A stretch of DNA of 48,777 bases from Silvibacterium sp. (lineage in GTDB: Bacteria; Acidobacteriota; Terriglobia; Terriglobales; Acidobacteriaceae). The notes beneath the pieces were generated by a model. The model did no database searches. It saw nothing but the letters and a program-made list of their open reading frames with translations, and was not told the DNA's origin. Every line of letters begins with the position of its first letter. Positions within the stretch are counted from its first letter, which is position 1. Positions 8,307 through 33,775 of the stretch are shown piece by piece. The DNA is taken from NCBI GenBank assembly GCA_019234945.1, contig JAFAKX010000032.1:1-48777 (forward strand). The letters run 5' to 3'. A program made the translations under genes and the position numbers.

Positions 8307-8640
8307 AGTTGTGGAATCTCCTTTTGATTCAGCGGGACAAGAGTACTCCCAATTACAAAACGATGAATGAATTTTCCGTGAATGGCTTGAAGAGGTTAAC
8401 CCAACCATTCGCACGCCCTTGACTTCACCGGCAGCGTTAAAGTGTCAACCCCCTGATTCCCGGCCTTCGCCGCAACGCACTCATTCCAAAGGTGAAATCC
8501 CCTCCGCCCTTTGGCGGACTATTTCCAGCAACTCGATAAAATAAAACTAGGCAGTTTCTCTGGCCTGCCGGCCCGCGCCCCCGCCTTCACTAGTTTGAGG
8601 TCCGGTAAAAACCAATATAGAGAATGACTTAGATTGCAAA
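8307..8640. other. Intergenic region upstream of the STAS gene
   Basis: Non-coding as far as I can see. It must carry the promoter of the leftward STAS gene, but I cannot place it firmly; a TTGACA hexamer exists on the minus strand (8451-8446) without a clear -10 partner. A short inverted repeat CCGCC-CTTT-GGCGG lies near 8506-8518. The repeat module begins at 8641. Confidence 0.5.
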
Positions 8641-8891
8641 CCAATGGAATGAATGGATTACAGCCGAAGCCTCCCTCCATCGCCATAACCGCTGGCTGAA
8701 GAATGGGTTACAGCTTCTTCCAATGGAATGAATGGATTACAGCCGAAGCCTTCTTCTGTCGCCATAACCCTGCCTAAAGAATGGGTTACAGCTTTCATCC
8801 AATGGAATCAATGGATTACAATCCACAGCCGGCAACAGCCATGGATTGAATGGATTACAAACCATACGGAAACCCGGGGGAGGGGACCCCC
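8641..8891 (+). repeat. Intergenic repeat module, copy 1 (AATGGATTACA array with G-rich tail)
   Basis: Six copies of AATGG(A/G)TTACA start at 8652, 8702, 8731, 8780, 8810 and 8849; the 8702 and 8780 copies have G at the variable base. Spacings are 50, 29, 49, 30 and 39 bases. The first part is also a 79-base tandem repeat (8643-8721 and 8722-8800). The array ends in GGAAACCC followed by GGGGG-AGGGGA-CCCCC at 8876-8891, able to form a hairpin. An inverted relative with the same spacing and tail lies at 26093-26290. It is not a CRISPR: repeats are 11 bases and the intervals are unequal and partly similar to each other. Confidence 0.85.
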
Positions 8892-8937: not shown

Positions 8938-9312
8938 TCACTTCACCCGCTCCAGCACTTCCGGTCGCGCCAGGTAGAGGAAGATCACTAGGTTGACCAT
9001 CACCATCACGACCAATGGCAGTTGGTGGAAGCGGAAGAGCACATAAACGCCGTAGCACATGGAGAGGAACGCGGCGGCGAGCGTAAGCGCCCATCCCCAG
9101 CGGCGCAGCTTGAGCAGGCCATTCGCGGCGATGGCATAGAAGGCGCACAGGATCATCACCGACGGCGGCAGGTTGTGCGTAATGACTCCGATGAGACCGA
9201 TGCCGCAGAGGAGCAGGTTCCAGATGCAGACGGCAGCCATGCCGGGAAGAAGGCCGGTGGACTTCGCCTCCGGGGCGCCAGACTTCGGGTTGGTGTCTTG
9301 GGGGTTGGTCAT
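8938..9312 (-). CDS. Small integral membrane protein, 124 aa
   Basis: The protein has four predicted membrane helices, about residues 24-46 (MAAVCIWNLLLCGIGLIGVI), 49-66, 72-92 (ALTLAAAFLSMCYGVYVLF) and 96-116, after a polar, proline-rich N-terminus. No family is recognised. Its ATG overlaps the stop codon of the upstream cytochrome c gene (ATGA at 9309-9312), implying translational coupling and a shared function in or on the inner membrane. The 3' end lies 46 bases from the G-rich tail of the repeat module. Confidence 0.75.
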   Translation of the reverse strand: MTNPQDTNPKSGAPEAKSTGLLPGMAAVCIWNLLLCGIGLIGVITHNLPPSVMILCAFYAIAANGLLKLRRWGWALTLAAAFLSMCYGVYVLFRFHQLPLVVMVMVNLVIFLYLARPEVLERVK

Positions 9313-26092: not shown

Positions 26093-26290
26093 GCGCCCCC
26101 TCCCCCTCCCCCAGTTTCGAGGCTCATTTTGTAATCCATTCATTGTGATGGGTTTGCCGGGCTGCCGTTGTAATCCATTCATTCTATTAGCAGGAGTTGT
26201 AAGCCATTCTCGGGACGAGAGTTATTTCTAGAAGAGTGACGCTGTGTTGTAAGCCATTCATTTCATTGGTGCAGTGTGTAATCCATTGTT
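26093..26290 (-). repeat. Intergenic repeat module, copy 2 (inverted)
   Basis: On the minus strand the elements AATGG(A/C)TTACA appear at 26287, 26259, 26209, 26179 and 26140 (first base on minus), spaced 28, 50, 30 and 39 bases, nearly the same as the last five elements of copy 1 (29, 49, 30, 39). The array then runs into GAAACTGGGGG and further G5 tracts (GGGGGAGGGGGAGGGGG), as copy 1 runs into GGAAACCCGGGGGAGGGG. Two elements have C at the variable base. The right end overlaps the last ten codons of the small gene at 26258-26626. Confidence 0.85.
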
Positions 26291-26626: not shown

Positions 26627-26680
26627 AAGGGACGGCTCCTTTTGGAAGTAGGGCAAATAAAAGTCGGAAGACGCACAAAT

Positions 26681-26701
26681 AAAAAGCCCGCCGAAGCGGG
26701 C
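26681..26701 (-). terminator. Terminator/attenuator in the leader of the CCCH gene
   Basis: GCCCGC-TTCG-GCGGGC followed by TTTTTATTTG on the minus strand, 55 bases before the start codon of the gene at 26626. A UUCG loop closed by C-G is unusually stable. No leftward gene lies between it and 27858, so it probably sits in the gene's own leader, or marks the end of a short leftward transcript. Confidence 0.7.
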
Positions 26702-26919
26702 CAGAGGAGGTTCTAGTTCTATTTTATCGGGTTGAGGGAAATGTTCGGCCAAGTCGACGGGAGTCGATTTGCTCTTTGGAATGAGGGAGTTGCCGCGCGG
26801 CAAGTTTGGAATGGGTCTTGACAACGAAGATGGTCTGGGTAGTGCGTGGCGCGAGAAGTCGAATATAAATATCAATTCGGACAACTCGGTGTTGCATTTG
26901 TCGCAGTATTATTTCCACC

Positions 26920-31549: not shown

Positions 31550-31721
31550 CTGTTCACATCCCATGTCCGCCTGAAGATCTCGATGGTAATAGCAGGGCTT
31601 AGCATGTCCCCAGCATGATAGGTTCTGAAATTACGCCAAGGCGACTTTGCGGCAACCCAGGCTTTCGCGCACTTATTCGTGCACTTATTCCCGCACTTTG
31701 GGGGCGCGAAGAAGTGTGGAA

Positions 31722-33440: not shown

Positions 33441-33775
33441 ATTGGTCGCTTTCGAAAATAGCAGACACCTTTACCGGTTGACACCGACAGTCGGCGGGCG
33501 CCATTCTTCGGCCGTTCCACACAGACGCTGGGCGGACGCTGGGCAGACACTGGCCAGCAGCCTGGCCGGCGCAGACACTGCCGGCTTCAATCCGCTACAT
33601 CATATGGGGGGGCCGACGCTCGACTCAGCTTGCAGCGTAGCTCGAATTCTAGAAGCTAATAAGTTGGCGTGGCTAGGCATACCAGTCTGACTTAGTCGGA
33701 TCGGATCGAATCTTCATACCAAAACACGGGTCGTGAATGGGCTCCGGGCGGATGTGATGCGTGGTTCCCGAGATG
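33441..33775. other. Intergenic region between kinase and ADOP permease
   Basis: The right part is GC-rich and holds short direct repeats: AGACGCTGGGC, GGACGCTGGGC and AGACACTGGCC in a row near 33523-33556, then a partial copy near 33580. The kinase promoter should lie at its left end, but no clear hexamers were found. No gene seen. Confidence 0.45.

What the first reader, a model, noticed from the sequence alone, without database searches (positions are those of the whole stretch)
26093..26290. Second, inverted copy of the module with matching spacing and tail
On the minus strand five elements are spaced 28, 50, 30 and 39 bases, against 29, 49, 30 and 39 in the copy at 8.7 kb. Both continue into GAAAC and then GGGGGAGGGG. 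The sequence between the elements differs much more than the elements and their distances. Unequal but conserved spacing in two distant, oppositely oriented loci argues for selection or recent dispersal of one unit.
Basis: seen in the sequence. Interest (0 to 1): 0.78.

Follow-up and report, generated by a model that had tools for sequence, protein, structure and literature searches.

The report
Dispersed phased-repeat element with zinc-protein gene
The two repeat arrays belong to a family of small dispersed bacterial elements, with a promoter-like head, a row of matching DNA words at fixed spacing and a G-rich tail, often seated against the ends of genes; one copy here also carries a small gene whose protein may read the words.

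Summary
In detail: five AATGGMTTACA words at 29-50-29-39 on the minus strand (26130-26287), in the order seen at 8.7 kb, both running into GAAAC and a G-rich tail. They are the 3' part of a larger element: promoter-like head (TTGGCCGA..TAAAATAGAAnTAG), GC hairpin, ribosome site, sometimes a gene of about 110-155 codons with conserved Cys/His, the array, then G5AG5. The 26.1 kb copy has the gene (122 aa, 26626-26258); the 8.7 kb copy has none. The genome holds 31 heads (E below 1e-3); sister species of the genus up to 69 (E up to 0.1). Words are 89% alike among eight copies here, spacers 53% (29% shuffled), and the lattice recurs in two sister species with other words. The tail faces a convergent gene in 58 of 86 cases, within 45 bases of its stop codon in 40. 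No inverted ends, target duplication or known transposase were seen. Best reading: a genus-restricted, MITE-like element family whose word lattice is read as DNA by a protein that changes between species, possibly the element's own. Anatomy, lattice, dispersal and word differences are shown; binding, reader and means of movement are inferred. A stricter rerun weakened the protein-array link.

The parts
26818..26823 (-). TGTCAA motif upstream of the head; by eye present in 7 of the 8 own lattice copies, about 37 nt from an inverted word-like site. Whether it belongs to the element is open
   Evidence: read; other copies read
26777..26793 (-). inverted word-like site GCAACTCCCTCATTCCA upstream of the head
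   Evidence: compared by eye with other copies
26676..26752 (-). head: TTGGCCGA..ATTTCC..TAAAATAGAACTAG (promoter-like) and hairpin; model R1 79.7 bits (this copy is one of the 20 the model was built from)
26685..26702 (-). GC hairpin followed by a T run (intrinsic-terminator-like); in other copies pairing is kept by two-sided changes at 4 of 8 pairs
26636..26643 (-). ribosome-binding-site-like AAAAGGAG
   Evidence: similar strings in gene-less C231, C143, C167
26258..26626 (-). gene for a 122 aa protein (P0001) with C7, C17, C28, H31; its 3' end overlaps the first two array words
26277..26287 (-). array word 1 (AATGGATTACA)
26248..26258 (-). array word 2 (AATGGCTTACA; long form)
26198..26208 (-). 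array word 3 (AATGGCTTACA; short form)
26169..26179 (-). array word 4 (AATGGATTACA; long form)
26130..26140 (-). array word 5 (AATGGATTACA)
26096..26112 (-). G-rich tail GGGGGAGGGGGAGGGGG; 3' end of the element
8443..8448 (+). TGTCAA motif of the copy at 8.7 kb
8480..8488 (+). inverted word-like site CTCATTCCA of the copy at 8.7 kb
8511..8588 (+). head of the copy at 8.7 kb (48.2 bits; hairpin degenerate; no gene found)
8623..8859 (+). array of the copy at 8.7 kb: degenerate word 8623, words 8652, 8702, 8731, 8780, 8810, 8849; includes a 79-bp tandem duplication
8876..8885 (+). tail GGGGGAGGGG of the copy at 8.7 kb, about 50 nt from the end of a convergent open frame at 8938

Best explanation
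The arrays are the site-bearing part of a genus-restricted family of small dispersed elements. A full element is head (promoter-like box plus early hairpin terminator), ribosome site, a small zinc-knuckle-like protein gene, a row of word sites in a fixed lattice (two 29-base dyads 50 apart, then 39, then about 25 to the tail), and a G5AG5 tail. Most copies held lack the gene, some plainly by internal deletion, but keep head, words and tail. Proposed working: a protein binds the phased words as DNA, in trans on gene-less copies too, and forms a regular nucleoprotein row that controls the element (its promoter/terminator and, over longer times, its copying). The most economical candidate reader is the element's own protein. 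Many elements sit just after stop codons of convergent genes, where their hairpin may serve as terminator. Shown here: anatomy, copy number, lattice kept across changed words, word likeness within a species, gene under purifying selection, dispersal to unrelated flanks. Inferred: that the element's protein reads the words, that binding is to DNA, and that the element moves by an unknown enzyme.
For: Own genome: 41 words vs 1 control; 31 heads with E below 1e-3. Lattice in 8 own copies (spacings 29-30, 49-52, 28-30, 38-39), in G008 L061/L134/L137 and at the G005 dipeptidase locus. 7-mers recur in 88 arrays at 29 bases (23 arrays vs 0.68 expected), 39 (15 vs 0.76), 50 (7 vs 0.98), 79 and 80 (7 and 8 vs 0.54). 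Words 89% vs spacers 53% vs shuffled 29%. Word identity 0.89-0.90 within species, 0.60-0.75 between. dN/dS 0.17-0.61 in 11 ORF pairs; C7, C17, H31 invariant in 13. Element-limited homology from TTGGCCGA to the tail between unrelated flanks; gene-less L134/L135/L137 look like internal deletions of an L061-like element. RNA folding of arrays hardly better than shuffles (mean z -0.31). ispG 3' end: element at the stop codon in G000 and G008, ordinary terminator-like hairpins in G007, G001, G003 (hairpins read by eye).
Against: No binding data. Link between protein and array: a first run gave r 0.43 (8 of 2000 permutations), but its arrays included 70 nt of coding sequence; with arrays strictly after the stop codon r is 0.27 (91 of 2000), less than protein-to-head likeness (0.36, 34 of 2000), so common descent explains it as well. 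No target duplication (mean shared word 3.94 vs 4.00 in shuffled pairs), no inverted ends seen, no transposase recognised, no clean empty site. In one search, which leaves out the 8 nt before each word and aligns with gaps, spacers are 0.52-0.62 (0.75 within G008) against 0.54 shuffled; so in G008 the word-spacer contrast is weak. Seven arrays of 88 fold with z below -2. Model of the protein is poor (pLDDT 54). Own copies were first found by the word itself, which biases word likeness upward. The species comparison rests on 8, 3 and 1 arrays. dS is about 1 or more, so ratios are rough. Gene positions came from a longest-open-frame heuristic with no random-site control.
Confidence: 0.45

Rival explanations
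1. The words are sites of a host-encoded DNA-binding protein unrelated to the element's gene, kept because the elements act as transcription boundaries between convergent genes (terminator plus protein roadblock). The small gene is a passenger.
For: Tail next to a convergent stop codon in 58 of 86 elements with a called gene, 40 of the 58 within 45 nt; element in place of ordinary terminator-like hairpins at ispG; another small ORF occupies the same slot in L181 and L211; only 14 of 121 loci have the zinc-knuckle ORF, and protein-array likeness is no stronger than protein-head likeness.
Against: Gene-bearing L061, L062 and the window copy carry different words that are like those of gene-less copies of the same species; several word types coexist within one genome, which fits several readers better than one host factor.
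Confidence: 0.25
2. Gene-less copies are old MITE-like relics; words are alike only because active lineages need them to be copied, and settled copies do nothing.
For: Internal deletion derivatives; dispersed copies with unrelated flanks; a seat at gene ends is what purifying selection would leave behind.
Against: In G000 words stay at 0.89 while spacers are 0.62 against 0.54 shuffled; at the dipeptidase 3' end G000 and G005 both keep the lattice although the words differ, though independent insertion there is not excluded.
Confidence: 0.18
3. The array works in RNA, as a 3' untranslated element of the gene it abuts or of the element's own transcript.
For: Position soon after stop codons; of 101 hairpins found, 53 have a T run after, 53 an A run before and 28 both, so some could terminate from both sides; 7 of 88 arrays fold with z below -2.
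Against: Mean folding z is -0.31 over 88 arrays; no Rfam family in the window at gathering score or in 5 loci above it; spacings differ by 10-11, as DNA helical phasing would give.
Confidence: 0.09
4. Plain recent duplication of one segment.
For: Same order and tail in both window copies.
Against: Spacers half different (52/102) while words are 52/55; many copies.
Confidence: 0.02

Closest known systems
[quoted passage not shown]
   Same: Small, dispersed, gene-less forms that look like internal deletions of a gene-bearing form
   Different: No terminal inverted repeats or target duplication seen, gene product is not a recognised transposase, body is a phased site array whose words differ between species. 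Defining features from passages of PMC10969869
BOX elements of pneumococcus (boxA-boxBn-boxC)
   Same: Modular head, variable number of internal repeats, tail; intergenic; many copies
   Different: BOX has TIR and TSD and a predicted RNA structure (passages of PMC3049150); here the array shows little folding signal and a protein gene can sit inside
SPRITE terminator-like repeats of pneumococcus
   Same: Terminator-like hairpin and seat close to gene 3' ends (passages of PMC3049150)
   Different: The passages describe no site array, G tail or gene for SPRITE
Tn7-like transposon ends (recalled, no call)
   Same: Several same-direction protein sites at one end; an inverted word-like site near the other end in the present subtype
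   Different: No transposase match in the element gene, no TGT/ACA at the mapped boundaries, no duplication seen
Zinc-knuckle families DUF5763 / HGGxSTG / zf-C3Hc3H
   Same: Weak matches at the N-terminus (C-x9-C-x10-C-x2-H)
   Different: P0001 scores far below the PF13891 cut-off; the others are weak hits of 3 and 2 of 13 members

Membership tests
MITE | terminal inverted repeats | tested here: not met
   ends mapped by element-limited homology are TTGGCCGA..ATTTCC and G5AG5; by eye not inverted copies of each other
MITE | target-site duplication | tested here: not met
   87 elements, mean longest shared flank word 3.94 vs 4.00 (sd 0.09) in shuffled pairs; old duplications could have decayed
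MITE | deletion derivative of a gene-bearing form, dispersed in trans | tested here: met
   L134/L135/L137 vs L061; unrelated flanks. That they moved in trans is inferred
MITE | parent encodes a transposase | tested here: inconclusive
   13 proteins: only weak hits, best E 0.001-0.003, none to a transposase; no PDB match
BOX element | predicted RNA secondary structure of the repeat | tested here: not met
   88 arrays (last 200 nt or less), mean z -0.31, 7 below -2; the head hairpin alone is structured
REPIN/RAYT (recalled) | REP palindrome with a Y1-type transposase in the genome | not tested
   no search for such a gene was run
Tn7-like element (recalled) | TnsB-type transposase and TGT/ACA ends | tested here: inconclusive
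   ends differ and the element gene has no transposase match; the genome was not searched for TnsB
Known structured RNA family | match to an Rfam model | tested here: not met
   0 gathering-score matches in the window; in 5 loci one match below gathering score, E 0.38
zf-C3Hc3H / DUF5763 / HGGxSTG | score above the curated cut-off | tested here: not met
   P0001 matches PF13891 at 14.3 bits against a cut-off of 27; DUF5763 and HGG_STG reach best E 0.0023 and 0.0027 in 3 and 2 of 13 members (cut-offs not printed for these)

The most novel reading that the evidence does not exclude
A new kind of mobile regulatory element: a non-transposase zinc protein and a phased DNA word lattice that evolve together like key and lock, so that species of one genus have rewritten the words of their gene-less copies to match their own protein, while the geometry (29-50-29-39-tail) and the seat at gene 3' ends, in place of terminators, stay fixed.
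Probability: 0.27. Interest if true: 0.82.

Novelty: new variant of a known kind. Interest (0 to 1): 0.6.

Why it matters
If true, it gives a natural experiment in which a protein and many dispersed binding sites change together within one genus while spacing is frozen, which makes the evolution of DNA-binding specificity testable with a 122-residue protein. It would also add a class of dispersed bacterial element that lacks the usual marks (inverted ends, target duplication, transposase) by which such elements are searched for, and that appears to take over the terminator position of some genes.

Tried and rejected
Plain duplication: rejected by the word/spacer contrast. RNA-structured array: little folding signal, no Rfam match at gathering score. 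Wide distribution of the exact word pair: 0 of 60 relatives; 5 stretches in genome contigs, by their titles from Lachnospiraceae, Pseudobutyrivibrio, Anaerostipes, Anaerovorax and a Cylindrospermum plasmid, each with only the two words, no G5AG4 tail and no head above 13 bits, so taken as chance. Phage or plasmid origin: no match of the protein in phages or plasmids or viral contigs; array of the 8.7 kb copy not in plasmids. Target duplications: none. Clean empty site: at cysS none of 8 sister genomes has a full-scoring head in the fetched locus (other matches at most 19.5 bits), but the upstream gene differs; the 8.7 kb locus in G008 holds another stretch of sequence between the same genes, and no head was found in the 7 of 12 fetched loci that were scanned. 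Structure: the single-sequence model was too poor, so no fold search was run. Homologues from sister genomes were not given to structure prediction, since its rule does not list loci of the genome search. Papers (search listings only, longest lists seen in part): searches showed no description of this element; passages of PMC3049150, PMC10969869 and PMC4692102 were read. Nothing beyond the held open-access library was searched. Outputs seen in part: one search was cut in the middle; one search printed only its last 6000 characters. Script failures: (stopped at the G006 row; finished in 89; stopped at its last part; finished in 107). One search was a translation in the wrong phase. One search was this report in a wrong format.

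Full report
Observation. The minus-strand words start at 26287, 26258, 26208, 26179 and 26140, spaced 29, 50, 29, 39; the plus-strand copy has words at 8652 to 8849 whose last five are spaced 29, 49, 30, 39. Eleven matches with at most one mismatch stand against 0.64 expected in the window; 0 of 100 shuffles reach that. Both copies run into GAAAC and a G-rich tail.

Genome-wide. The window is contig C49 of an unnamed, 72% complete, 3.5 Mb assembly in 256 contigs. AATGGMTTACA occurs 41 times there against once for the reversed pattern, mostly in clusters with the same spacings (at least one hit, in L040, stands alone). Eight clusters have the full five-word lattice: the two window copies and those on C115, C117, C143, C167, C179 and C231. 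Their words are 89% identical on average, their spacers 53%, shuffled spacers 29%, allowing one gap per spacer. The two window copies: words 52/55, spacers 52/102, shuffled 30.5. A caution: these copies were first picked by the word itself, and the spacers include the 5' part of the long words.

The whole element. Sequence upstream of the arrays shares a head, TTGGCCGA..ATTTCC..GATAAAATAGAAnTAG, then a GC hairpin and T run. In 20 aligned heads eight hairpin pairs are predicted, four with two-sided changes that keep the pair. In the 26.1 kb copy the hairpin is followed by AAAAGGAG and a 122-codon gene that ends inside the array. A covariance model of the head finds 31 matches in the own genome at E below 1e-3 (three lie close together on C129). 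In 60 relatives, with E up to 0.1, it finds 69 matches in G008, 37 in G005, 37 in G004, 26 in G007, 14 in G006 and 8 in G003; 17 and 16 in G001 and G002, all weak (best 0.004 and 1e-4); in other genera the best is 7e-7 in G013. So the strong copies are confined to part of one genus in this sample.

Other words, same frame. I held 121 head-centred loci of own and sister genomes (a few overlap). Fourteen of them have an ORF with the C-x9-C-x10-C/W-x2-H motif (some loci were fetched through the protein, so the share is not unbiased). Subfamilies have their own words (seen in part). In 88 arrays with a tail, 7-mers recur at 28-30, 39, 41-42, 50, 69, 79-80, 109 and 118 bases, 7 to 34 times more often than in two-base-block shuffles. 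The lattice recurs in G008 with AAACGGTTACA (L061, L134, L137: 29, 50-51, 29-30, 39) and in G005 with AAACGATTGCA/G (29, 51, 29, 39) at the 3' end of a dipeptidase gene, where this genome has its own lattice with GGMTTACA words. Word identity is 0.89 within G000 (28 pairs) and 0.90 within G008 (3 pairs), 0.73 between them (24 pairs), and 0.60 and 0.75 against the single G005 array. Spacer identity, aligned with gaps and without the 8 nt before each word, is 0.62 within G000, 0.75 within G008, and 0.60, 0.62 and 0.52 between species, against 0.54 (sd 0.03) for shuffled spacers. In G000, copying or gene conversion alone would carry spacers along with words; a reading protein that differs between species explains it better. 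In G008 the copies are more alike throughout and the contrast is small.

Ends and dispersal. Among G008 copies with unrelated flanks, homology starts at or within a few bases of TTGGCCGA and ends at the tail, about 330 bp at 70-82%; L175 and L177 are 86% identical but share 215 bp upstream as well. Gene-less L134, L135 and L137 lack nearly all of the gene of L061 but keep its start region and last codons; own gene-less C231, C143 and C167 keep RBS-like strings. A strict tail (G5AG4 or longer) follows the head in 65 of 114 copies, against 1 of 114 on the other strand and 1 of 105 upstream. No target duplication was found in 87 elements. By eye, 7 of the 8 own lattice copies have TGTCAA and an inverted word-like site before the head; whether that belongs to the element is open.

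Seat. By a longest-open-frame heuristic the gene beyond the tail is convergent in 58 of 86 cases, and in 40 of the 58 its stop codon lies within 45 nt of the tail; no random control was run. ispG was found in 9 of 9 genus genomes, in G004 and G005 cut at its 3' end. At its stop codon G000 and G008 have an element (different words; heads confirmed); G007, G001 and G003 have a hairpin and T run, G002 none that I saw, G006 two word-like sites only (read by eye). The dipeptidase gene was found in 5 of 9 genomes: G000 and G005 have an element at the stop codon, G008, G001 and G006 have no head. Of 13 pairs of own and sister copies examined, most share one flanking gene, L082-L174, L089-L172, L095-L141 and L084-L201 in the opposite orientation; L090 and L157 are homologous through element and flanks (seen in part). 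This suggests repeated use of the same seats.

The protein. Thirteen homologues share invariant C7, C17 and H31; C28 is W in one (L070). dN/dS is 0.17-0.61 in 11 pairs, with dS about 1 or more. Family searches give weak hits only, no solved structure, no phage or plasmid match. A profile of the 13 finds 14 strong matches (E below 1e-25; most are the input sequences) in 7 of 9 genus genomes, and weak matches in 14 other genomes of 297 drawn from the phylum, all in the same taxonomic family; in the loci inspected no tail follows their stop codon within 500 nt. The likeness of protein and array over 10 elements is r 0.27 (91 of 2000 permutations) when arrays start after the stop codon, against r 0.36 for protein and head (34 of 2000); an earlier figure of r 0.43 was inflated by coding sequence in the arrays. 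So the protein's role as reader is a candidate, not a result.

How it may work. Spacings that differ by 10-11 bp, little RNA folding signal (mean z -0.31 over 88 arrays, 7 below -2), and words that differ between species while geometry stays fixed point to a protein that binds DNA on a regular face. The most economical candidate is the element's own protein, acting in trans on gene-less copies; a host protein is the chief rival. What moves the element is unknown.

Novelty. Seven searches of the held open-access library (listings only, partly cut) showed no such element. It resembles MITEs and BOX elements in plan but fails their inverted-end, duplication or RNA-structure features (features from passages).

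Noticed in passing
L181 (G008) and L211 (G006): The same kind of head stands before a different small ORF (MSNIFQKLGIGIADFGKWF.. and a relative); L181 then has a three-word array and tail, in L211 none was found.
   Followed up: partly
upstream of heads, e.g. L088, L089, L092, L100, L135; inside L083: Heptamer-like strings CCCTGATCCCTGTTCCCTG / CTAATCGCTAATCCC near several heads; G-rich heptamers are described in Xanthomonas and Nostoc (passages of PMC4692102).
   Followed up: no
L175 and L177 (G008 C25, C38): These two copies share 215 bp upstream of the head as well (86% over 511 bp), so a longer unit can be duplicated.
   Followed up: no
L101-L103 (own contig C129): Three head matches lie within about 1.2 kb, as if elements were nested or tandem.
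   Followed up: no
L280 (G006), 3' of ispG: Two word-like sites (AATCAATGACATG, AATCAATGATTTAG) without head or tail where G000 and G008 have whole elements.
   Followed up: no
L265-L267, L269, L270, L272, L273, L242, L247, L252-L261: Larger proteins with a similar C..C..C..H start occur elsewhere in the taxonomic family, with no tail within 500 nt of the stop: a possible host source of the element gene.
   Followed up: partly
window 31664-31698 and 33522-33557: Short 12-bp and 11-bp tandem repeats.
   Followed up: no
G000 contigs C24, C167, C219 (L031, L037, L041): A shorter sister subtype with the same word at 41-base spacing and a similar tail.
   Followed up: partly
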